The notes beneath the pieces are model-generated. The model was given only the letters and a program-made list of their open reading frames with translations, was not told the DNA's origin and searched no databases. The translations under genes were made by a program, and so were the position numbers. From Capitulum mitella (lineage: Eukaryota > Arthropoda > Thecostraca > Pollicipedomorpha > Pollicipedidae), in the NCBI GenBank assembly GCA_030062745.1, contig CP099843.1, positions 15,603,997 through 15,667,996 of the forward strand: DNA of 64,000 bases, in the 5' to 3' direction. Shown here piece by piece: positions 784 to 50,653 of the stretch (the stretch's first letter is position 1; every line of letters starts with the position of its first letter).

Positions 784-972
784 ACCTGGAGGGCGGCCGT
801 TTCTTCTTCAACGCAGTCCGCGAGGGTGACGGCATCCTCTTCGCGTGCGAGGACGAGAACGAGTGCCACCTCTGGGTGATGGCTATGTACCGGGCCACCG
901 GCCAGAGTCACAAACCCACGCCGCCAGTCATGTCGCAGGGCAAGAACACCACCCTCTCCAAGCTGCAGGGCG
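784..972 (+). CDS. Cadps: CAPS exon: C-terminal half of PH domain
   Basis: It encodes [19 protein letters not shown], then the end of the PH domain with [18 protein letters not shown]. It starts after CCCGCAG, splitting a GAC codon, and ends at G|GTGAGT in phase 1. PH domains of CAPS proteins bind PIP2 at the plasma membrane. Confidence 0.95.
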
Positions 973-3900
973 GTGAGTGGCAGACTGATGGTAGACGTCG
1001 ACGAGAGCGTGCTCCGAGCGGGCGGCGGTCAGGGAGGGTGCGAAAGTCAGCGAAGGAAACTGCAGGTTGATTGGCAACTGGCAAACTGGCAAATGTCGAC
1101 AAGTCTTGCCATTAGTTATCTCGCTGAGGACCTCACACGTGATATCATCAAAAGACTGTGACGGAGAGGGCCACTGGGTTCCCCTCTTCCTTCCTCGCCC
1201 TGCATTTATCTCCCTTTTCCTGCTATCGATGCTCTCGCGCCTGGCTCGTTTCACCCGTCCAGCCAACTGACTTGTTGTACGCCTCCGCCGGTCCGACGAA
1301 CTCTGGCCTCTGCCCGGCAGACGCCGACCGGGCGCGCAAGCACGGCATGGACGAGTTCATCTCGGCCGACCCGTGCAAGTTCGACCACGCCTCGCTGTTC
1401 CAGTTCCTGCAGGCGCTGACGCTCGAGCACCGGCTGAACGAGCCCATCGCCTCGCTGGTGAGCGCCGGCCGGCGGCGTGGCCGGGGCGGGCGTCAGACCG
1501 GCCGGCCGAACACGCTGGGGCCGCTGGAGGGTGGGGTGCTCCGGGTTCAGACCAGCTCCGGTGATGGGGGCTGGTGGGACTGCACAACGGGAGCCGTAGC
1601 AAATGGGCCTTAGGTTCACTGTACGTTTAAGAAAATGCAGTTCTGAGTCGCTGGCTGACATCGTTAGTCTTTCCTGCAATTGCAACTCCCCAACCTCTGA
1701 CATAGTAGCTGTTTACGAGAAGATACAGGCTTTTGTTACCGAACCTGACGTACGTACTGGCCATCGCTTGTCTGACTTGCTGCATACCGTATGTTTCTGT
1801 GCTAAAAGTTTGATTACTGAGCTCAAAATAGTACCGTATTTCCGCGTTGCCAGCGAGACGCACGATGGTGCGATACGTTTTGCAGTTGCACTTGATATCG
1901 AGTTATGGATCTCTGAGGCGCCGAAACAAAGCACTGCACGCTGTCGGCTGGGCGTCGCCGCGCCACGGCTAAATAATTCAGCGCAGCGAGTGTAGCGGGA
2001 CTGCCGTGCAGATTATTGCTGGACTGCTGCGTGGACAAAGGCCACGTCAGTCGGCGGCAGACTGCGTTCTTTGTTGGCATCAGCCCTCTGTCAGCTGAAA
2101 ACGACTTGCTCTTGCCGCCTGTTGATCTCTGTAACGTACAAGCGTCATCAGGTGAAGCGCTGTCAGTGAATGCCAGTGTCCGACGCGTTGGTTCATTGTT
2201 GTCACGCCAGTTACCTCAGCTATAAACTTCATAAGCTTTGTACGGTCCGCTTGTCTCACAAACACTCAACAGCGGTCCGATGGCTGGAGAGGCTCCTGCC
2301 GGCCGAGCAAGGTCTCAGGCCATCAGCCGAGGCCAGGTGCCGGTCCCGGACCACCAGCCGAGGCCAGGTGCCGGTCCCAGACCACCAGCCGAGGTTAGGT
2401 GCCGGTCCCAGACGACAAGCCGAGGCCAGGTGCCGGTCCCAGACCACCAGCCGAGGTTATGTGCCTCGGCCGACGGCCCGGGACCGGCACCTGAACCCAG
2501 ACCACCAGCCGAGGTCAGGTGCCGGTCCCAGGCCATCAGCCGAGGTACCGCTCCCGCTCCCAGACAATGAGCCGAGGTCAGTCGCCGGAGCGAGGCCGAC
2601 TCTGGCCGGCCGCCAACGCCTGTCTGACGCGTCCTCCCCCGCCACAGGGCTGGCTCAGCCCGGGCCAGGTGTTCGTGATGGACGAGTACTGCGCCCGGTA
2701 CGGCGTGCGCACCTGCTTCCGGCATCTGGCCTACCTGCGCGACCTGCTGGCGCACAGCGAGAAGGGCGTCATGATCGACCCCATGCTCATCCACTGCAGC
2801 TTCTCCTTCTGCGCCAGCCACGTGCACGGCAACAGGTAGGCGGCGCGGCGGCCGGCTGACGCCGCTTGTCCGCCCGGTCCTGGGTGTTCGCGCTCTTATT
2901 GGCTTTTTGTGTGTCGGGCGCGGCGGTCGGTGCGCTCCGAGCAGACCCGTTTTACTACGTGTACCCTTGTCACGGCCTCCACCAGCACATTGACGGCGCT
3001 GCGCCGCAGCGGGCGAGAGGCCGGCTCTTCTGACGGTCGCCGCGCCCTCTGGCTGTGGGAATAGAGCGGGAGGACTTGCGATGCTTTCGTGTCACGGGAA
3101 TGATGGCTCCCTGCTCCCTTGTGGGCCAAATTCCTCAGCATACGATAACTATCTTTGGGATCAGGCAGGTACTTTTCTGTGTTAAATGGGCTGTATGAAC
3201 TAATTAGGCATTCATCATCGTTTTTAGCCTTTCTAACGCGGGCGTCGCTTGTCCTGATCCATCAGATACGCAAAGATTTCACCCATGGGTCATTTTCCTT
3301 GCTTTGGTTTATATGTTGTCCCGTATGAAGCATGGTCAAGGACAAATTAGCGATCGTGATAATTGAATATTGACTGTAGTCGAACTGACGTTACATTTTC
3401 CATCTCTGTTCCACTGAAATAATTTTTAAACGTCATTATCACGTCCTTTGAAAATTGCGGATAATTTTATTTGAACAATACAAGTACCTTAAAAAAGAAA
3501 ACGATTTCCTTGTAATCACAGCTATGTGTTTTTGACGGAGAGTGAATCAGTCAAGTTCCGGTAGGAAAGCGAATTACACCGTGGAGCAATATTTTTTCTC
3601 TTGGAATCTTGGACAAGACATCCAAGGGAATCTGCCGTTTTGTGAGACACTGCTTCAGCTGTTTGGGGAGATGCATAGGCCATTAGCAAAAAAAACATTG
3701 TGAATTTCGTTTACGAGTGCTGTCAGCACAGTGCATGCAAACTTAAAAACGAAGAACTTATTTTGTATGAGGTAGAAATGCAGGGTTCACAGTCAACTTT
3801 TTTGACTTACTGAACTGATGTGCTCTTACGCAACTGCAACGTTGCAAATTGCTAAACCTTGCTCCTGTACCCATAGCGCTCGGGCATAGCGCATGGAAGG

Positions 3901-9900: not shown

Positions 9901-11021
9901 CCCGTCGACGTCCGCAAAATGAAGAGCGGCGGCTGGCGTTTGGCTGGCGGCGCGCCGAATCGGAAGCGGTGGAAATTGAGCTAACCTTGTCGATCCTCGT
10001 GAGCCCGGACCCCAGTGCCTTTCCCGTTATATGGTGCGGCTGCCCGACGGCCCAAGTCGTTTTCCCTACAGCCTCCGACGACCTAAAACGAAGCCTTTTC
10101 GGCCCGAAGCGGAAAATCGGCGCATCCGGCCCATAGCGCCGATCGAATTACCGTTCTGTCTCGCCGATTCAGACTCCCGCGGGCCATCCCAGCAAGACGC
10201 GGCGTCTCCAGAGGGTACTGTATCTGGCCCTGTTGCCAATGAGCCGTGCGATTACCGGACCGCTCGGGGGAGGGGAGTGGAGGGGGGGAGGGGGTCGGCG
10301 ACGCGTGCCCAGCTCGCAGTGCCTGGACCCTGTCGGCTCTCTGACCGCCTCGCCGTTGCAGGCCGGACGGAGTCGGCAGCGTGCTGCACGAGGAGAAGGA
10401 GAAGTTCCAGGAGATCAAGGAGCAGCTGGACATGCTCTTGGAGAACCAGATCGCCAACTTTAGGTAGCGGTGGTCCCCGCGCCCGTCGGTGTTTTTGATA
10501 TTTGCGATTTCGTCACTGGTGTGTCTTGCGAGGGGAGAAAAACGGTGACGTAACAGTGGTAACGTTTTCGTCACGCCACTCTTTGTTTTTTTTTTCTTAG
10601 CAGCCATTTCGGCAATAGACCGAAGGTCCAGAGTGGAAGGGTTAAACTTTTCTGGAAGCCACCCAGCGTAAAGTCGGATTGGGCCGTTAAGAGGAGCTCG
10701 AGGACATCAATCTTTTGCTAACACAACTTGGACGATCGAAAACTGCACTTTGCTCTTTTTGTCGTTACGCTGTTGACTGATTATATGAGCTGGATTTCAT
10801 GGAAGCACAGGGAATTTTTCATGCGTTTTACCTTCCCTTGTGAAATGGTTTCGTGCATCATAACAGAAATGGAACGTTGGTGTTTCATAGAACATGCATT
10901 CCCGCTTAAATAGTATATTTTTGTGTTTTGGTTTGTTGTCATATGCAGATGTGGTAAATACCAGTATTTTCGCAAGTACATCGAAACACTTTCAGTGCAG
11001 AATTCAGGACCATCTGCTTGC

Positions 11022-11108
<87 letters not shown>

Positions 11109-14100: not shown

Positions 14101-17100
14101 GATAGCGGTCCAAGGCACTGAGCCATTGCTGCCAGCGCCTACGGCATGGTTCACGGCTCACCTAGATGCCGAAAGCTTGCAAGTTTTGTGAAGTTCCCAG
14201 CCGACCCCGTGCATGCTTACTGCCCGTTGTGCGCTGTGAAGTGCTTCGAGCAGCCTGCTGGCGCTTCGTAGGCAACCCGGTAGACATCTTTAAGCAAGTG
14301 AATTGAAAACTGGAATGCTTTGTTTCACTGCATGATATATGGCGTCATATTTCCCTGGTTGAAAAACTAAGAACACTGACAATAAATGGTGGTTTTGGCC
14401 ACTGGCCCTTTTTTCCAACACGACTACACGTCGATGCATCTGCATGATTTCAAAACTTTATCGGTCGTCAGTATGTCTACTAAATTTAAAAACTAACATA
14501 ACCGTTTTGCACGACTTAACCAAAGAAATAATATGTAACAAGTATCATGGATCACAAGCACGATTCCTTCCCGCTGCATTCCACATGGCTACGCAGCTGA
14601 GCTCGCGAAATACGCGTTACAATGAAGTGAAATGGGGTTGAAATGAAAGATATGGGGAACTTTGAAAAGTTTGGCCTCCTCCGTTTTACAGAAAAAGTGG
14701 TGGTCTTTTGCTGGCTATTTTCCTGTTTATGCCCACGCTTCCAAAAAATGTGGTAGTGTATAATAACGAGTTGATAGCCTTACCAAGTTAAAAACGAAGT
14801 AAATTGCTCCTTGTTTTGATTGCCCTGGACATCACCGGTTTCGAGATGTTTGGATTTTATAAACAATATGCAACTTACAGCAGCAAAAGCGAAAGCTAAA
14901 GACTTATTGAATACTGGCCTTGCATCTCATGCTCCGCAATATCATTTCGATTTTCGCGCGAGGGCTGAAATGTGTTTAAGATCTACCTACATTGTCGTGA
15001 ACGACATCTTTTTGATTTGGTGTCTGTGCACTTTGCAGCGATATGGTGTGCATCGGCGGTTTCCCTCATAACTACTTTAACTCAAAACTGAGCACCTTAC
15101 AACGTTTTTTTGCGAGGCAACCACAGTTTCCCCAACTTCTGATCGCCACTTCTGCCGTGTGTTCGGAATTTGCGCTCCTCGGCTGCGGCTTCTCATATCT
15201 ACCGAATTTTTCGCCCGGAGATGATCAACTGTTCCTGTCCCAGATATCTCAGCTGATCCTGACTTGTTGCCGTTTTTCGCGTTACTCGGTCTTATGTATT
15301 AATCGTATTCCAGTCTTCTGACTTGACGCACTGCTTCTATTTCAGTCGTCTTCGCCCCCTTTCCCAGACCCCTTATATGACCCGTAACATCCAATATACG
15401 ATGTTCTGACCCCTGCTATATTCTGAATCCTCTGGCCTATCACCTCGTTTCAGTCACCTGGCCGGCTCACTGATTTCAACACAACAGCCCTCTGATCAAA
15501 CCCATTGCTGCCACTGCAACCTTTTGACTTCGCGGACTTCTGCCGTTCCAGCCCTGTTACCTCACCCACTTTTGTCATTACAGTCCTGTCATCCTCCGTA
15601 GCTCTTGGGGCGTAACTTCTGGTCAAGGTTAGACTTTTGTCATTTTCTCAGTCTCGTAATCTGCCACAGTCCTGAAATTTGTCCTTAATGCAGACCCTCG
15701 CCCGGTCTCGCTTCTCTGCAGGGTCCGGACGATCAGCGTCCTCAGCCCAGCCCACTGACCTACTCCCTCCGACCTGACCAGCGTCCCCAGCCCGGCCCAC
15801 TGACCCACTCCCTTCGACCCTACCATTGTCCTCAGCCCAGCCCACTGACCCACACACTCCGACCCGACCAGCGTCCCCAGCCCGGTCCACTGACCCACTC
15901 GCTCCGACCCGACCAGCGTCCCCAGCCCTGCCCACTGACCCACCCACTCCGACCTGACTAGCGTCCCCAGCCCAGCCCACTGACTCGGCTCGACCGCCCG
16001 TAGGCGTTCGCATGGTTCAGCGACCTGCTGGTGGAGCACGCCGAGATCTTCTGGTCGCTGTTCGCGGTGGACATGGACCAGGTGCTATCGGAGCTGCCGC
16101 CCGACGCCTGGGACTCGTTTCCGCTGTTCCAGATACTCAACGACTACCTGCGCACCGACGGTGAGCCCTGCCGGCAGGCGTCCGCGGCCTCCGCCGCTCG
16201 ATTCGCGCCCGCCGCCGCCGCCACCGATGACGCAGGGTTGTGCGGGTTCGTCTGATCTCGGCGCGCTTCAATTCGCCGCCGGGATCAATACGAACTGAGG
16301 CCGATTGTGGGGAACGGGGCTCTGGTGGCAAATTGCGTGTTTTGGTGATTGCTTTGGGGTTATAGTTCTCGGGATGCTCGATGTGTTATACCAACTGTGT
16401 ATCCAGCACGAAGTAAAGGATGCCTGCTGCTAAGAAAGCATTCTTTTGGTGCTGACATACACATATTTTCATGCTGAAATTTCGGCTCGGAATTGGATCG
16501 CTGCCCCATATGAGCATCAGTAACCACATTTTGCAAAGAGCCTCGCCACCGGCTGATCATTGGATGGAAGTCTTCAGATGCGATGCAATGCAGTGCAGTC
16601 CCGTGTGCCCTCCTGTAGCGAAACCGCTGGTTGCAAAAGTAGTTTGGTTAGTTGGGTGTTATAAGTATTCTCGTGTCATCAGACTGGAAGACGGATTGAG
16701 ACGCCGAAATACTCTTGGAGATTTAAGCTCTACCTGGGAACCATTTGCAAAAAGAAGGCCGTCGGAGGCAGACACATGGACGGAGAGTTGTTTTGAAAGT
16801 TGGTGTGGCAATAGTCCTCTCGGTCATTCCCATTTACCGTTTGCCCCCCCCCCCCCAGTTTATTTTCTGAAAGGATTTCAACTATTCCATTTTCGATTTT
16901 GATGGAAATGACTCAAAAGACGTCTGTGTTTCCGCCAGTTACAGGTTTACGCCGCAGCACTGTGTACACCAGTATTGAAGAGTGCAGCGGACTAAACGGC
17001 ATACACTGCGCACCCTTCACATATTGTGCAGCGTTCAGGCGCGGGGACCGCTGTTGTTAATGTCAGTCATTGAAAGAGCTCATATTTTCGGCAACATTCC

Positions 17101-20100: not shown

Positions 20101-23100
20101 TGGCGTCAACAGGACACTCCCATTCGGCTGAACTGGCTGAATTGCAAGGGTCTTGGATCTTGATTTTCGTTGACCTCATGGCTGCTTAACCGAATCAGTG
20201 TAAGATCGTACGCACTGCCTTGGTTCCATTTTCTCGGGACCATTTTTCAGCCGTAACGCTGGTACTCAAACACGACGCTGTGGTGCCAGACTCAGAACCA
20301 TTTCTCCAGACCGCTTTTTGCTACTTAAGTCCATCCATATTTCATCAGGTGGCACTCATTGATCTGTCTGCAGACGCCCTGCGGCTTAAAGCCCAATCTT
20401 TGCTCTCACATCTCCCAAAGCTATTCTGGGACTGTTCTAAGTAACGGATGTCTCTGCTAGTCCGACGGTAGACATTGGAATGCTACGTTCCGTGGAAGGA
20501 CGGCCTCGCCGTTACCATGGAGCTGGATATTGTCGGCCGTGATGGAGATGCTTTTGTTCCGCCGGCTACTGCGACGTTTTGCGCTGGCCGTGGTATTCGT
20601 TAATAACGTGCAGCGGATATTCATCGTCCTATGTGACGTACAGAAACATGTTCTTACGCGACTTTTTTCGACATGCGCTACTCTTTCATGTTTTCATTTT
20701 GGTCAACGCAGACAACAAACACGTTTGCTGGTGAGGATAACATTTCGTCTTGCCCTGTGAAAAGGCAGATCATGGGAATGCAAACCGGATTTTTCTTTTT
20801 CACTTTTGTCGCTTTATTCCCGCACGCCTCCATTCAGACGACGTCATTCACACCGTATGGCGTCGGAACACTGCCGTTTACCGCTGCCGACTCGTCTCGA
20901 TTATACGGCCGACCGGTCGCGGCCGACACCTCTGACGCATTGTCCGCCCCGCAGCACCAGTACCACACCAAGATCGACGACCTGATCGAGCGCACGCTGT
21001 CCGGCATGGTGTCTGGCCTGGTGGCCAAGCTGGTCTCCGTCCTCGAGTCAGTTATCGCCAAGTTGGGCCGATACGACGAGGGCAGTCTCATCGGCAGCAT
21101 CCTCAGCTTCACGGTGCGCAGCCCGCCGCCGCGTAGCCGTGACGGCCGACGCATGCCACGCGCTGTGACGTGTCTCACGTCTCGCTTCCGTATCCGTAAC
21201 GGGTACCGCATCACGTTATATGTAGTGATGCGTCACACATTAATGGGGAGCGGCACGACAGATTTAGCAGATTGCTGTGATCTTTATGAGTGTCAAATGA
21301 ATGGTGACCAGTATCGAATCGGCATTGTTGCTATAAATCGACATCGTTGCTGATACTGTTATGCCTTATACGACATATCATATACCGTAACTTGCGAGGT
21401 GTGATCCAGAGTTTGACTGAGCTAGGTTTGACTAAGTTTGACTAAGTTTGATGGTTCTCTCGTCGGTGACATATGGGTATTAAGAAGGGAATGTGTCAGG
21501 CTTATCTTCGAAATATTTATCTGAAGCGTGTTGCCATCTGACGGAAATGGGGGAATTCTGCTTAAGCTCGCAATTCTGTACCGCTGCCTGCGCGGCGACT
21601 CCGCGAAAAACTGGCCCCCGTGGAGGTAAAACAGAGAGACGACCTTTGCCGGGCAGTATAAACAGAACGTGTCCGGCTCTGGAAGGGACCTGGGCCAGTC
21701 GTACGTCACCTTCACCCGCAACTGCATGGACCAGATCCGGCAGAAGGTCAACGACGAACTCTTCATCCTGAACGTATTCGAGGTGAGTGCAATCTAAAGG
21801 TTCTGGTTCAGCTAAGCTGAAGTCCATCTGGCTGATTAAATCAGTCACGTGGTATCGCAGTGCAAATTGGGCAAAGCTTAGATTGTCTGGAAATCGCTTA
21901 AACCCAATGTTTATGCATCAACGCCAGTAAAACAAGTTCAGGCAAGCCCACGCGCTGGTCACATTGGACCGTTGTTTATGTATCAACGCCAGTATGTTTA
22001 TGTATCAACGCCAGTAAAACAAGTTCAGGCAAGCCCACGCGCTGGTCACTGGTTACATTGGACGACCGTCTGATGTCGAGTCGTCAGACCTCGGCTCCGG
22101 CACAGACCAGGCCCAACCGAGAGATCGTGGTCACACGAGGCACAGGCAGAGGGGTGTGGCCGTGCGCCGTAACTCGTGACGCCTCCCTGGCGTGAATCGC
22201 TACCTAGTGGCGATACCGTGGCAGCCCCTGAAGATCTGGTGTGGGGCTCCAAAAAGAGCTTCAGCTCTAGAAAGAGGAAAGAGTTCGTGCATCAGAAGAG
22301 CTTGCGCGATGGCGCAGTTCGTGATGGTCGACAGGTACAGCTCACACACAGACCAAGATGTTATTCTGGTAGCAAAGGTCAAGAGAGGCGTTGATTTTTC
22401 GTTCACAACAGAATTCAGTCCTCGTCCACGTCTGCCTTTTGGTCATACAAAACAAATGACAAAAAGCAACAACAGCGGCACGAAACGCAGAGGCGTGACC
22501 GATGCTGGTTCTCATCTCCACACAGACACGTCCATCGGACTCACATTGCCCGGACGAAAAAACCTCGCAAGGCGGGGCAAGGTGGACGTCGCGCGCGTTT
22601 AGATGACCTTGGTGGCTCAAGACCGACCTTTACTGCTGATTTCAGATCTGGTACACCCAGCAGATCCAGCTGCTCTGCACGTGGCTGTCAGATCGTCTGG
22701 ACCGCTCCCTCCACCCCTATCAAGTGATGTGCCTGGCCCATATCGTCAAGGTAAGCGACGGGCCCTTCTGGCTCACCTCACCGCCGAGCCGGCACGGCAC
22801 GCCAGTCGCAGACTGCAGCCGCTCGCTTTGACGTCTTATCGTGACGCCGCATGCAAGCCAGCCTAGAAACTGCCCGCGATAAAACCTGATGATCTCGTTG
22901 CATTGGAGCGCATGATCTTTACTGAACGGCGTGAGGGCGGCGTTCGTTTCCACAGATAAAATCAAGCCTCGTTTGTCTTTGTCATGCACCGCACAGTCGT
23001 CCGTAACCGTTTCCAGTAGTTAATGCGCATGATTGCCCTTGCTCGTGCATCGTCTCTGAGGCTGCTGCAGTGGACTTTCGCGTGAATCGAGAACGTGATT

Positions 23101-25861
23101 GAATGTAATCTCCCTGGTGTTGCGTCATTTTCTCTTTAGTGTGTACATTTTCGACACCATGCGTTCACAGCACGTGAAATTATTACACCCACGAGCCCAG
23201 GGAATGCATTGTTGGACATTGGTACAAAGTCCGTGTTTTGACACTGGAAACCAGGCCCACCTTGTGGGAGTTCTCGATTGTCACTTCTGTCCGCTGCAGC
23301 TGCCTCGCTTCCGTGCTGCCGCAGCCGTATAACGCTGTTTCCCCCGCCGTCCGCCTGCGGCGCTAGTGTCTCGGGTCGGACAACAAAATGCACGGTCTGA
23401 GGGAGGATCGGGTAGAGACGCCCAACTACCGGACGTGCGTGGAGCGCCTGGAGACGGAGCGGCGGGCACTGGTCATCAGAGGCAGGATGGAGTAGAGCGA
23501 GTCCTTCGGCGGCCTCCGACTGCTGGCAACAGTCACCAGGCGCCCAGCTCAGCAGCCCGAAACGCTGCGTGCGGTCGGGACGGTCTTTCGGTCTGTGGGT
23601 CGTAAATGGCACCGTGAAGCAGTTCATCGATATTTATGCTGCCTTTCTCGGACGACGTTTTGTGATTTGATATGCCTGGCTTGTGGCGCTCTGCGCTAAC
23701 TACAGAACATTGAGACGTGCATATTACATCGTTAATTGCGCCGTTGTAGAGACGGCTTATTTTGGGGAGAAGGGTAATCACGCTACCACCAGGCGTACCA
23801 CGTGGAGGTCTCTGACAATCGACATGGTCAGTGTTATTTGGGCACGACCTCTTCATCAGCATCAGTCTATGTCATGGACTGCCCTTAGTTGTATTATTGC
23901 GTGCAGTTATTTAGGTGTTTGTTTGATGTTCTCATTTGGCATCAAGAATTGTGTCTTCCTCCTCGTTTTCTTGTTGACCAGTTCTGCATTCCGCAATGTT
24001 CCGAGCACCGGGAAATACAGATATAGTTTTGTCGCTTTTGAACGTATGTTATGCTTTAATGTAAATAAACAGTGTAGACGCATGATTGTGCATGCAGCTC
24101 GTATACTCACCAGCACGCTTTAAAAACTCATGATGTGACGATCGGCCATGAAATATCAGTCACATGCTTCTCTACACATTTGGCGTACTTTGGTAGAGCA
24201 GGTGAGTGTGACGATCGATGTATGCGGCAGATATCGACTAAAATACGCCGTCGAAACCTATGACGCTACCGTGATTTCACGCACGTCAGTAGCGTAGCCG
24301 TGACCAGAGGGCCACTTACCGCCTTGTGACGCCGTTTTCTCACTTTTGTCATCATTGGGTTGGAGTGGTAAAACAGTTTTACTCTTTTCGTTTCTTCGGC
24401 ATTTTGACTTCGTCGTGGATGAAATACACTTTGACCTGATGCATGCATCGTCACCTAAAAGCGAAAGTTAAAGCAGGCATTAACCCAAACATGTGCTCGC
24501 CTCCAGAAATTGTACAGTGACTTCGAGCTGCAGGGGGTGACGGAGGACAAAGTTAAACAGCAAAACATACCAGACCATCAGCCAGCGGATGCAGACGGAG
24601 GAGGCTACCTGCGCTCTGCTGGAGGGCAGCAGAAGGGACGAGGAGTGAGTATCAGCGACAGCTCTAGAAACGGCTGCAATCGACTGGAGCAATGAATCCA
24701 CGTAGCACTTCTGTTTTCCAGCGATGTTGATTCCTCTTTATCCCAACTGAATTCTAGCAACTTTTTTTTGTTCCGTGAGTGCTTTCCTTCGGCGACTTGA
24801 GTCCACCTTCCCTCCGGGAAGGCGGACTTTCTCCTCTCCGTCATCTCTGTTTGGTTTTACATGATTCTCCTCCAGCGTCTGCCCACCGCTTCTCATGCGA
24901 CGTCACTCTGAAAGGCCCGTCGTACCTTCGGCACTCATGCGACCATCTTTTCCCTTACTAATGATCTTTGCGCCTCGCAGCTCCTCCCACAGCCTTTCCC
25001 TGGCCTTTGATGGGGCCGGTTATCCTCACCCTCCCGCGTCGAGTCTGCCCACGCTGTCTCGGAAGGCCCCGGCAGCCGAACCCTCTGACGTCGACGACGG
25101 CGCCCCCGCGTGTCCGCCGCGCCGCGCGAGGAGCCGGCCCCCAGCCGGACGTCCTGCCGTCAGGGAGTACCAGGATGGGGCGCTGGACGAGGAGGACGGC
25201 GAGGGCCGGACGGGCGCAGCGCGTCACCGTGCGGGAGTCGCTCGGCGCCGAGGACGGCAACGTGGCCGCCAAGGTGGCCAACGTCACCTCCAACGTCGTC
25301 GGCAAGGTGGGCAATAAGGTGAGTGCGCAGCGCCGGCTGCGGCGCGGTGCCGGAGGCACGGTCAGCCGCTGCAGTATGGCGGTGGTCGGCTGTCGTCAGT
25401 GCTGCGCCTAGTACCGTCGACATGGGTGTTTAGTCCAAAAGTCATTTCAAAAACTGATTGTTACGTAAACCTTTTTAATCTATTTCTCAGTATTTTTTCA
25501 TGGCGTTCCTCCTTTGTTTTTTCATGACGACGTTCTTCCTGTGTCCCCATGTTTGTTCAATTGATTTAAAATGAAATATCGCGTAAAGTAACATCAATGT
25601 ATTCATTATATTTTTTACTCGTTAGTGATCACGACACTGGTCCCACCTGTCAGCATGTTCGTGCACATGATACTTTTTCAAAGCTTACCGCTCGTTTCCA
25701 CTGGTACACACGACGTTTTGCATCGTGCTGATGTCAGGAATTGCCACAGTGAGCCACAGAGCGTCCCTCCACAGGTGGGCGGTGTATTGGGCGGCTTCTC
25801 CAAGGGCTTAGGCGGCCTGGGCAGCCGTCTGGGCGGGGGCGGGGGCGGCGGCTTCTTTTGA
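784..25861 (+). CDS. Cadps: Calcium-dependent secretion activator (CAPS), 3' part of gene, 16 exons
   Basis: Spliced reading: 784-972, 1321-1457, 2648-2835, 10362-10463, 11166-11353, 12981-13093, 16004-16160, 18245-18386, 18697-18852, 19467-19620, 20955-21113, 21657-21782, 22646-22750, 24507-24644, about 25164-25318, 25775-25861, roughly 765 codons. Junction phases agree up to 24552. The product matches CAPS/UNC-31: end of the PH domain ([11 protein letters not shown]), the MUN/Munc13-homology region ([45 protein letters not shown]) and the C-terminal region. CAPS is a cytosolic and vesicle-associated factor that binds PIP2 and SNAREs and primes dense-core vesicles for calcium-triggered release. 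The N-terminal half (C2 domain, start of PH) is upstream of the window. Oddities are a one-base frame break in exon 24507-24644, a frame conflict in 25164-25318, candidate microexons and a duplicated terminal exon, each listed separately. Family identity is very secure; the last 60 codons are less so. Confidence 0.95.
1321..1457 (+). CDS. Cadps: CAPS exon after the PH domain
   Basis: It encodes [19 protein letters not shown] and continues through [21 protein letters not shown], a strongly conserved CAPS block. The acceptor is CCCGGCAG, the donor is CTG|GTGAGC, and it ends in phase 0. Confidence 0.95.
2324..2585. repeat. 31-bp minisatellite, about nine copies
   Basis: The unit begins AGCCGAGGCCAGGTGCCGGT and recurs every 31 bases (2324, 2355, 2386 and so on), with increasing divergence toward the 3' end. 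It creates spurious long ORFs on both strands. It lies in a CAPS intron and ends about 60 bases before the exon at 2648. Confidence 0.9.
2648..2835 (+). CDS. Cadps: CAPS exon ([17 protein letters not shown] block)
   Basis: It encodes [20 protein letters not shown] and ends in [10 protein letters not shown], with the arginine codon split by the donor (AACAG|GTAGGC). The acceptor CCGCCACAG lies about 60 bases past a 31-bp tandem array. Confidence 0.95.
3852..5050. mobile_element. Degenerate copy of a 1.2-kb TTAA-flanked MITE-like element
   Basis: The 3' end reads ACGGGAATAGGG followed by TTAA (5047-5050), the same end as the copy at 58367-59574. Internal landmarks are shared in the same order: AGATCTCGAGAAC near the 5' end, TTTGTATAATGTT in the middle, TAAATGACCTC, TTTAGGTCATAG, and CTCCGCCCCTGAGCAAAAT near the 3' end. 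The 5' terminal repeat has decayed. No transposase is encoded. It sits inside the 7.5-kb CAPS intron. Confidence 0.75.
8950..9560. repeat. Degenerate GGTCTG-rich minisatellite
   Basis: Phrases such as GGTCTGATGTGTTG, GGTCTGCATTG and GATAATGTTCC recur irregularly at roughly 30-35-base spacing, for example around 9430-9500. The array is too diverged to define one unit by eye. Confidence 0.5.
10362..10463 (+). CDS. Cadps: CAPS exon ([15 protein letters not shown] block)
   Basis: It encodes [20 protein letters not shown] then [12 protein letters not shown] and half of an arginine codon. It is preceded by a 7.5-kb intron, the longest in this gene within the window. The acceptor is GTTGCAG and the donor TAG|GTAGCG. 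Confidence 0.95.
11024..11104. repeat. (GA)n microsatellite
   Basis: About 40 perfect GA dinucleotides in a CAPS intron, ending 61 bases before the exon at 11166. It produces Arg-Glu and Ser-Leu runs in spurious ORFs. Confidence 0.98.
11166..11353 (+). CDS. Cadps: CAPS exon: start of MUN/Munc13-homology region
   Basis: It encodes [20 protein letters not shown], then [24 protein letters not shown]. It enters by completing an AG|G arginine codon and leaves in phase 1 at AAG|GTCAGT. A pure GA microsatellite ends 61 bases before it. Confidence 0.95.
11883..11903 (+). CDS. Cadps: Candidate 21-nt phase-neutral CAPS microexon
   Basis: The acceptor TTGATTTCCGTTTGCCAG is followed by 21 bases and the donor CAG|GTAAAG. 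The flanking exons end and begin in phase 1, so inclusion adds seven residues (DSGSGVA) without shifting the frame. Serine- and glycine-rich content suits an alternatively spliced surface loop. The splice signals are convincing; use is unproven. Confidence 0.5.
12981..13093 (+). CDS. Cadps: CAPS exon ([21 protein letters not shown])
   Basis: It encodes [20 protein letters not shown] and then [18 protein letters not shown]. The acceptor is TCCGATCCAG in phase 1 and the donor GAG|GTAAGG in phase 0. It corresponds to the vertebrate block around [21 protein letters not shown]. Confidence 0.93.
13094..16003 (+). other. CAPS intron with GC-rich block and pyrimidine-rich tail
   Basis: It contains a GC-rich stretch from about 13320 to 13700 that opens ORFs on both strands with no recognisable family. 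Its last 850 bases form a pyrimidine-rich degenerate repeat tract leading to the 45-bp array. An exon-like segment at 13982-14031 is 50 bases long and would break phase. Confidence 0.5.
15739..15985. repeat. 45-bp pyrimidine-rich minisatellite, about 5.5 copies
   Basis: The unit begins TCCCCAGCCCGGCCCACTGA and repeats every 45 bases from 15739. It ends 18 bases before the acceptor of the exon at 16004. Each unit carries a CCCCAG that resembles a 3' splice site. A more degenerate version appears to extend back to about 15300. Confidence 0.9.
16004..16160 (+). CDS. Cadps: CAPS exon ([20 protein letters not shown])
   Basis: It encodes [20 protein letters not shown], then [20 protein letters not shown] and NDYLRTD, a hallmark CAPS block. 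The acceptor CCGCCCGTAG sits directly after a pyrimidine-rich 45-bp minisatellite. The donor is GACG|GTGAGC, phase 1. Confidence 0.95.
17413..17671. repeat. Dispersed repeat family R2, copy A
   Basis: It shares with 42726-43010 an ordered set of blocks: GTAGCCAA, TAGCGATTTCGCAGGAATAC, GATCATATAT, TTTCGTCATA-like, a poly-C run, and then a GGAAA-TCCTG-CTAC-TGCCTGG end. It lies in a CAPS intron. It is a non-coding dispersed repeat, perhaps a SINE or MITE remnant. Confidence 0.75.
18245..18386 (+). CDS. Cadps: CAPS exon ([21 protein letters not shown])
   Basis: It encodes [20 protein letters not shown], then [28 protein letters not shown]. The acceptor is CTGTCACCAG. The donor GG|GTAGGC leaves phase 2. 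Vertebrate CAPS1 carries extra spliced sequence after this block, but here the next exon follows directly with [10 protein letters not shown]. Confidence 0.95.
18697..18852 (+). CDS. Cadps: CAPS exon ([21 protein letters not shown])
   Basis: It encodes [20 protein letters not shown] and continues to [19 protein letters not shown]. The acceptor is ACGCGGCAG, and the donor AAAG|GTCAGG splits the arginine codon. Confidence 0.95.
19361..19395. repeat. (ACTCG)n pentanucleotide array
   Basis: Seven near-perfect ACTCG units, one with a T for C, in the CAPS intron about 70 bases before the exon at 19467. Confidence 0.9.
19467..19620 (+). CDS. Cadps: CAPS exon ([21 protein letters not shown])
   Basis: It encodes a lysine-rich linker and then [30 protein letters not shown] and VDGVDV. 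The acceptor is CGCCGACAG and the donor GTG|GTGAGC, phase 0. A pentanucleotide TCGAC array ends about 70 bases upstream. Confidence 0.94.
20955..21113 (+). CDS. Cadps: CAPS exon ([20 protein letters not shown])
   Basis: It encodes [20 protein letters not shown], then [25 protein letters not shown] and ILSFT. It is phase 0 on both sides, with acceptor CCCCGCAG and donor ACG|GTGCGC. Confidence 0.95.
21657..21782 (+). CDS. Cadps: CAPS exon ([20 protein letters not shown])
   Basis: It encodes [20 protein letters not shown], then [22 protein letters not shown]. The acceptor is TTTGCCGGGCAG and the donor GAG|GTGAGT. It is phase 0 to phase 0 and matches the CAPS block around [20 protein letters not shown]. 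Confidence 0.93.
21908..22062. repeat. Tandem duplication of about 65 bp plus a partial third copy
   Basis: The segment TGTTTATGCATCAACGCCAG through GCGCTGGTCAC occurs at 21908 and again at 21994, almost identical. A short third copy of its first 20 bases lies between them. It is in a CAPS intron and looks recent. Confidence 0.85.
22646..22750 (+). CDS. Cadps: CAPS exon ([19 protein letters not shown])
   Basis: It encodes [20 protein letters not shown], then [15 protein letters not shown]. The acceptor is CTGATTTCAG and the donor AAG|GTAAGC, both phase 0. It can splice in phase to either of the two related terminal exons, at 23367 or 24507. Confidence 0.94.
23367..23495 (+). CDS. Cadps: Duplicated alternative terminal exon of CAPS with its own stop
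   Basis: After a pyrimidine-rich acceptor (TTTCCCCCGCCGTCCGCCTGCGGCGCTAG), the phase-0 frame gives 42 codons and then TAG. The first 36 residues align without gaps to the exon at 24507 once that exon's extra base is ignored. Shared positions include L2, S4, D5, G10, E13, D14, Y21, T23, R27, T30 and E31. I infer a tandem exon duplication that gives a mutually exclusive, shorter C-terminus. There is no good donor before the stop. It could also be a decayed copy that is never spliced in. Confidence 0.55.
   Translation, partial: CLGSDNKMHGLREDRVETPNYRTCVERLETERRALVIRGRME
24507..24644 (+). CDS. Cadps: CAPS exon with a one-base frame break
   Basis: The reading begins [15 protein letters not shown] in phase with the previous exon. 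From 24553 the conserved CAPS sequence continues in the next frame as [19 protein letters not shown], so G24552 is one base too many. It ends at GGA|GTGAGT, phase 2 in the corrected frame. The uncorrected frame happens to stay open to the donor, so automated annotation could keep a wrong tail here. An assembly or polishing error is the simplest cause; a real mutation is possible. Confidence 0.85.
25164..25318 (+). CDS. Cadps: CAPS penultimate exon, 5' boundary and frame uncertain
   Basis: The 3' part reads [19 protein letters not shown], then [14 protein letters not shown], and ends in phase 0 at AAG|GTGAGT, joining the last exon cleanly. The 5' part is acidic ([10 protein letters not shown]) in a different frame, the one that fits the corrected upstream exon. 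CAPS C-termini are commonly acidic at this place. Either a second one-base insertion lies near 25205-25225 or the real acceptor differs. Candidates are 25164 after CCGTCAG, 25066 after TCTCGGAAG, and 25220. Confidence 0.6.
25775..25861 (+). CDS. Cadps: CAPS last exon, glycine-rich C-terminus and stop
   Basis: It encodes [20 protein letters not shown], then a run of seven glycines and two phenylalanines before TGA at 25859-25861. The acceptor is CCCTCCACAG in phase 0. A glycine-rich end closing on aromatic residues differs from the acidic end of vertebrate CAPS. Confidence 0.75.
   Translation: MGGVLGGFSKGLGGLGSRLGGGGGGGFF

Positions 25862-50598: not shown

Positions 50599-50653
<55 letters not shown>

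What the first reader, a model, noticed from the sequence alone, without database searches (positions are those of the whole stretch)
23367..24644. Duplicated, possibly mutually exclusive CAPS C-terminal exons
The segment at 23367-23495 and the exon at 24507-24644 both accept phase-0 splicing from the exon ending HIVK at 22750. Their translations align without gaps over 36 residues with about a dozen identities (pattern L-SD----G--ED------Y-T---R--TE). The upstream copy has no frame break and ends in TAG. This predicts two CAPS isoforms: a long one with an acidic and glycine-rich tail, and a short one lacking it. The CAPS C-terminus is implicated in dense-core vesicle association, so the switch could change targeting.
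Basis: partly seen in the sequence, partly recalled or inferred. Interest (0 to 1): 0.8.

Follow-up and report, generated by a model that had tools for sequence, protein, structure and literature searches.

The report
Duplicated CAPS C-terminal exon, partly diverged
In an animal gene for CAPS, a protein that helps release hormone-filled vesicles, one exon near the end exists in two related copies, so the gene can probably make two forms with different tails, though this still needs RNA evidence.

Summary
The exon pair is real. The segment 23367-23492 is a diverged copy of the exon at 24507-24644: it scores 59 against that exon's peptide, and among 127,810 six-frame positions of the window the best unrelated one scores 27. 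Its codon score (9.03) is near the canonical exon's (10.96); 0 of 2,049 overlapping intron windows reach it. The gene is CAPS.

Three corrections. (2) The tail exon also switches frame. (3) 'Mutually exclusive' is unproven: the copy has no usable donor at its end, so an alternative last exon ending at TAG 23493-23495 fits best. That stop overlaps a phase-2 GT, possibly the relic of a lost donor.

Against: the copy's acceptor is weaker than 13 of the 14 scored in this gene, and neither transcripts nor other animal genomes could be examined. It is a new member of a known kind: tandem-duplicated exons that swap C-termini.

The parts
784..929 (+). exon for the end of the CAPS PH domain (right boundary approximate)
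   Evidence: phmmer of a query that begins with this exon: residues 1-49 match 1wi1_A (E 2.4e-17) and 1-48 match 7vs3_A (E 1.1e-16), both named as CAPS; acceptor
22646..22750 (+). shared upstream exon IWYTQQIQ...HIVK, end of the MUN domain, donor AAG|GTAAGC, phase 0
   Evidence: Pfam PF06292 match
23367..23495 (+). upstream exon copy, 42 codons plus TAG; proposed alternative 3'-terminal coding region
23492..23493 (+). phase-2 GT (GGA|GTAGAG) overlapping the TAG stop; possible relic of a donor, probably too weak to be used
   Evidence: score -0.5, below all 13 donors of this gene (0.27 to 11.15, leave-one-out); 36.8% of 786 GTs score as high
24064..24069 (+). AATAAA, 568 bases after the TAG; possible polyadenylation signal of the short form
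   Evidence: at least one is expected by chance in this interval with probability 0.24, so weak
24507..24644 (+). canonical exon copy, phase 0 to phase 2 in the conserved reading, with a one-base frame slip as assembled
   Evidence: its first part carries the MUN match to the end of the model
24981..25318 (+). tail exon (acidic part) with a frame switch near 25200; left boundary rests on the acceptor alone
   Evidence: codon-usage frame switch; the first 60 bases show no coding signal in any + frame; boundaries
25775..25861 (+). last exon of the long form, [28 protein letters not shown] then TGA

Best explanation
A CAPS exon encoding the end of the MUN domain and the start of the C-terminal tail was duplicated in tandem long ago. 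The downstream copy (24507-24644) kept the ancestral role and leads into the acidic, glycine-rich tail. The upstream copy (23367-23492) stayed under protein-level selection but has no working donor at its end. When HIVK (22750) is spliced to 23367, the reading frame ends at TAG 23493-23495 and the transcript ends downstream, perhaps after AATAAA 24064, giving a short CAPS that lacks the tail. When 23367 is skipped, HIVK is joined to 24507 and the long form results. Shown: gene identity, exon homology, register of the acceptors, an in-frame coding signal that falls away at the TAG, no good donor there. Inferred: that the junction 22750-23367 is used, that transcription ends there, that a donor was lost, and any effect on dense-core vesicle binding.
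For: Homology of the copies. Protein-level constraint (observed BLOSUM 59, neutral mean 11.2, sd 12.3). Codon score 9.03 in frame against -33.7 and -25.3 in the other forward frames and -14.7 to -42.4 in the reverse ones, 10.96 for the canonical exon read across its slip, and -12.65 in frame just after the TAG. In 60-base windows the in-frame score peaks at 9.5, above the highest of 2,961 intron windows (8.27). The GT at 23492 scores -0.5 as a donor. The DNA and the peptide each match one place in the 477-Mb assembly, so the copy is not a recent retrocopy or scattered repeat. Homologous C-terminal swaps are an enriched class in human genes, 77 of 236 events against about 15 expected (passages of PMC9741552).
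Against: No transcript evidence. The acceptor at 23367 scores 1.02, below 13 of the 14 acceptors scored (range -4.33 to 11.74), and 27.8% of 618 AGs score as high. The first 60 bases of the copy have only a weak codon score (-1.0; intron 95% point -4.4, 99% point 0.34), and another frame reaches 1.6 just after the TAG (window from 23516). Since neighbouring exons hold frame switches, the TAG itself could be an assembly artefact. AATAAA in the interval is expected by chance with probability 0.24, and an open frame of 42 codons here with probability 0.35. Better donors lie beyond the TAG (23574: 6.06; 23827: 7.66; 24202: 10.16), which would fit an internal exon carrying a stop. The last 11 residues of the copy do not resemble the other exon beyond chance.
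Confidence: 0.52

Rival explanations
1. Strict mutually exclusive internal exons: the copy uses the phase-2 GT at 23492 (125 nt, 2 mod 3, the same end phase as the other copy in its conserved reading) and is joined to 24981, so both isoforms keep the tail. Including both copies would break the frame.
For: End phase matches; both GTs are preceded by GGA, and GTAG occurs in 3 of the 13 donors of this gene. The conserved frame of the canonical exon also reads a stop (TGA) across its donor, so a stop at the junction is expected for a phase-2 exon.
Against: The site scores -0.5, below all 13 donors (0.27 to 11.15); 36.8% of 786 GTs do as well. The start of the next exon at 24981 is itself uncertain (no coding signal in its first 60 bases).
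Confidence: 0.18
2. Poison exon: the copy is included with a donor past the stop (for example 23574), so the transcript is degraded and CAPS output is lowered.
For: Donor-like sites at 23574 (6.06), 23827 (7.66) and 24202 (10.16) after the TAG.
Against: Protein-level conservation and codon usage of the copy are not needed for a poison exon.
Confidence: 0.1
3. Decaying relic: the copy was once a used exon, lost its donor and is now dead but not yet scrambled.
For: Weak acceptor and no donor; the last 11 residues are no longer alignable.
Against: No stop in 42 codons, in-frame codon score near that of the canonical exon, conservative replacements.
Confidence: 0.17
4. The upstream copy has taken over, and the downstream exon and tail are truly frame-broken in this animal.
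For: Two frame switches in the long path, in the exons at 24507 and 24981; none shown in the copy up to its TAG.
Against: Coding signal remains strong on both sides of each switch, including the stretch [32 protein letters not shown]; base-level assembly errors, or for the tail an unrecognised short intron, are simpler causes.
Confidence: 0.03

Closest known systems
Tandem-duplicated 3' exons giving homologous C-termini (tropomyosin TPM1, fly Tm1, worm lev-11; passages of PMC9741552)
   Same: Neighbouring homologous exons, each able to supply a different end of the protein.
   Different: Other gene; here one copy would end the protein and the other leads to further tail exons; no transcripts seen.
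Mouse CAPS2 short forms CAPS2d-f, each with a unique 3' exon (passages of PMC1853102)
   Same: CAPS family; alternative 3' exon giving a shorter protein without the C-terminal tail.
   Different: Those forms are truncated from exon 14, 12 or 5 and lack the whole Munc13-homology domain; here truncation lies at the end of the MUN domain. The passages seen do not describe the unique exons as duplicates.
Mammalian CAPS1 glutamate-to-glycine A-to-I editing, E1250G or position 1252 (passages of PMC5192505 and PMC9049930)
   Same: Diversifies the C-terminal (DCV) region of CAPS after transcription.
   Different: One residue by RNA editing, not an exon. Whether that residue falls within this exon was not determined.
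MUN-family microexons and unc-31 exon 3 (passages of PMC12287369 and PMC12084633)
   Same: Neuron-type-specific splicing of CAPS genes.
   Different: Microexons or a cassette exon upstream of the main domains; the passages seen mention no duplicated exon.

Membership tests
CAPS/CADPS gene | PH domain close to solved CAPS PH domains | tested here: met
   E 2.4e-17 to 1wi1_A and 1.1e-16 to 7vs3_A; only the end of the PH domain lies in the window
CAPS/CADPS gene | MUN domain after the PH domain | tested here: met
   PF06292 E 1.4e-112 over the joined exons
Tandem-duplicated exon pair | neighbouring exons with significant sequence similarity in the same register and phase at the acceptor | tested here: met
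Tandem-duplicated exon pair | both copies coding | tested here: met
   codon scores 9.03 and 10.96 against an intron mean of -35.7; the downstream copy only when read across its one-base slip
Mutually exclusive internal exons | both copies have a usable donor of the same phase | tested here: not met
   the copy's GT at 23492 scores -0.5, below all 13 donors of the gene
Mutually exclusive internal exons | transcripts contain one copy or the other, never both | not testable with these tools
   no RNA reads available
Alternative last exon | stop codon, then polyadenylation before the next exon | tested here: inconclusive
   TAG at 23493 and AATAAA at 24064, but the latter has a chance probability of 0.24
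Conserved exon pair | same pair in related species | not testable with these tools
   the tools offer no animal genome but the window's own; prokaryote and viral scans gave no relative

The most novel reading that the evidence does not exclude
The TAG of the short form is the fossil of a splice donor. A phase-2 exon followed by GTRAGT reads a stop codon (TAA or TGA) straight across its own donor. Losing the donor of one duplicate would then turn it at once into a last exon with a clean stop, giving a homologous alternative C-terminus. This could be a general route behind the enrichment of C-terminal exon swaps, and here it would yield a CAPS switch that keeps the MUN domain but drops the vesicle-binding tail.
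Probability: 0.22. Interest if true: 0.6.

Novelty: new member of a known kind. Interest (0 to 1): 0.42.

Why it matters
If used, the pair would give a natural CAPS that keeps its priming domain but lacks the tail linked to dense-core vesicle association in mammals. That would allow priming and vesicle targeting to be separated in a living nervous system. It would also add CAPS to the genes that swap homologous C-termini, and would offer a simple test (end phase of duplicated last exons) of how such swaps arise.

Tried and rejected
Relatives elsewhere: one genome-contig scan (208 pattern matches, 0 relatives) and three viral-contig scans gave no CAPS relative. The only locus, L001, matched 15 residues; the 500 bases around it looked unrelated to CAPS by eye, so it was dropped. 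A PDB search with the HIVK exon joined to the start of the canonical exon gave only two weak, unrelated matches. Further copies of the exon: none stands out in the window. In the assembly, searches returned only the known places, but these searches are not sensitive enough for copies this diverged: one search did not return the exon at 24507, nor the copy at 23367. A second CAPS gene: the 15 MUN matches lie at two loci only, and the one on C3 is closest to Unc-13. RNA pairing between the introns: imperfect repeats only, not pursued. Rfam: 0 matches at the gathering threshold. The source may be a barnacle (16 contigs, 477 Mb), but that is a guess: Capitulum mitella has 16 chromosomes, while its published assemblies are 463 and 512 Mb (passages of PMC8416341 and PMC11331182). 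Literature: of the papers listed (20 of 63; 15 of 14,242; 20 of 1,788; 15 of 15; 12 of 64; 10 of 251), seen as titles and starts of abstracts, none names a duplicated CAPS C-terminal exon; a search for the exon's peptide string gave 0 papers. Supplements and exon databases were not searched. A look in PMC4341531 for C-terminal terms gave 0 places.

Dropped rows: one of the 14 donor entries was a typing error not found in the window and gave a junk score; one search repeats the scores with 13. The exon at 10362 was left out of the codon table and included. Donor and acceptor lists were chosen by eye from the translations and do not cover every exon (19467 has no donor in them; 12980 and 18700 have no acceptor).
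Full report
What is there. The window lies on contig C5 of an unnamed 477-Mb assembly of 16 contigs. On its + strand, exons from about 784 to 25861 encode the PH end, the MUN domain and the C-terminal tail of CAPS. The PH-end exon matches the CAPS chains 1wi1_A (E 2.4e-17) and 7vs3_A (E 1.1e-16), and the joined exons match Pfam MUN (E 1.4e-112). The 15 MUN matches found in the assembly lie at two loci, this one and one on C3. The C3 gene matches six chain sequences of Unc-13 homolog A and no CAPS chain. CAPS therefore appears single-copy, as far as that search shows.

The observation. After the exon ending HIVK at 22750 come two candidate continuations. The upstream one, 23367-23495, is open for 42 codons and ends in TAG. 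The downstream one, 24507-24644, is the canonical exon: its first part joined to HIVK carries the MUN match to the end of the model (35.7 bits, model 434-473), while the upstream copy gives 27 bits (model 434-469). The two peptides are related. The shuffle test, read across the slip described next, gives a score of 64 against a mean of 19.9 and sd 3.9, with 0 of 5,000 as high. Against 127,810 six-frame positions of the window, the copy scores 59 and the best unrelated position 27. Both acceptors are in phase 0 and the similarity begins at the same residue.

A correction to the alignment. Read as assembled, 24507-24644 matches the copy for 19 residues (8 identities; 1 of 5,000 shuffles as high). 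The rest of the similarity lies in the next frame. Codon usage independently switches frame inside this exon and again inside the tail exon near 25200, and the genome search with the slip-read peptide returns the exon in two frames. The first switch lies inside a run of homologous codons and is a one-base slip; the second could be a slip or an unrecognised short intron. Assembly error is the simplest cause; reads were not available.

Is the copy coding? Probably yes. Its codon score in frame is 9.03, close to 10.96 for the canonical exon read across its slip; 2,049 overlapping intron windows average -35.7 and none reaches 9.03, nor does any of the 424 open ones. In 60-base windows the in-frame score peaks at 9.5, above the highest of 2,961 intron windows (8.27), and falls to -3.3 at the TAG. 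The first 60 bases are weaker (-1.0), and another frame reaches 1.6 in the window from 23516, a little above the intron 99% point of 0.34. With frame switches in neighbouring exons, this leaves a small chance that the TAG is itself an assembly artefact. Under neutral divergence to the same DNA identity (49 of 93 bases), a BLOSUM score as high as observed arises in a fraction 6e-5 of 50,000 runs, and an open frame with at least 11 identities in 0.6% of 200,000. That simulation is simple (uniform changes, one copy taken as ancestor). The open frame alone means little (chance 0.35).

Does it end or splice on? In the conserved frame the canonical exon ends in phase 2 with GA|GTGAGT, so its frame reads TGA across the donor. 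The copy reads GA|GTAGAG at 23492, also phase 2 (125 nt), giving TAG. So the stop could be part of a donor or the relic of one. With a matrix from 13 donors of the gene, the site scores -0.5, below all 13 (0.27 to 11.15), and 36.8% of 786 GTs do as well. By this measure it is not a usable donor. The acceptor at 23367 is weak too: 1.02, below 13 of 14. AATAAA at 24064 could end a short transcript, but its chance probability is 0.24. Stronger donor-like sites lie past the stop (23574, 23827, 24202) and leave a poison exon possible. That the two exon ends are homologous is inferred from phase alone: the last 11 residues do not align beyond chance.

Interpretation. The best reading is an alternative last exon made from an old tandem duplicate, giving a short CAPS without the acidic, glycine-rich tail. 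In mouse CAPS-1, residues 1220-1355 are called the DCV domain, and the paper cites work in which removing 135 residues of it impaired vesicle interaction in PC12 cells (passages of PMC5589909). The same passages recall an earlier study of mouse neurons with no evidence that CAPS-1 travels with dense-core vesicles, and say that no CAPS-1 isoforms like those of CAPS-2 had been described. A change of targeting is therefore only a possibility. Mouse CAPS2 has shorter forms with unique 3' exons, but these lose the whole Munc13-homology region (passages of PMC1853102).

Known kinds. Swaps of homologous C-termini by tandem-duplicated exons are known and enriched in human genes, 77 of 236 events against about 15 expected, with tropomyosins as examples (passages of PMC9741552; CADPS does not occur in its main text). 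The present case is a new member of that kind in CAPS. The listings, of which only the top rows were shown except, named no duplicated C-terminal CAPS exon, and one search found no paper with the peptide string; supplements were not searched.

Limits. No RNA reads and no other animal genome could be examined. Prokaryote and virus scans found no relative. Age, conservation and use of the pair therefore remain open.

Noticed in passing
window 24981-25318: Frame switch in the CAPS tail exon: coding signal passes from one frame to another near 25200, so the long C-terminus is not readable straight through as assembled; its first 60 bases show no coding signal.
   Followed up: partly
window 2311-2588 and 15730-15984: GC-rich minisatellites with units of 31 and 45 bases between CAPS exons; also a GA array of 40.5 copies at 11024-11104 and a TA array of 26 copies at 50601-50652.
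   Followed up: no
window 23058-23094 and 23270-23306: Imperfect inverted repeat (37 nt, 76% complementary) in the intron just before the copy; a second pair (24 nt, 75%) joins 22756-22779, right after the HIVK donor, to 24899-24922, shortly before the tail exon. Both could be chance.
   Followed up: no
window 24202: A near-perfect donor-like CAG|GTGAGT lies between the two exon copies, 138 bases beyond the start of the AATAAA; no matching exon was identified.
   Followed up: no
window about 21910-22040: A short stretch of the intron before the HIVK exon appears twice in a row (seen by eye).
   Followed up: no
window 1457-25318: The 13 donors listed for this gene are varied: GTAG begins 3, GTCAG begins 2, GTGCGC occurs once.
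   Followed up: partly
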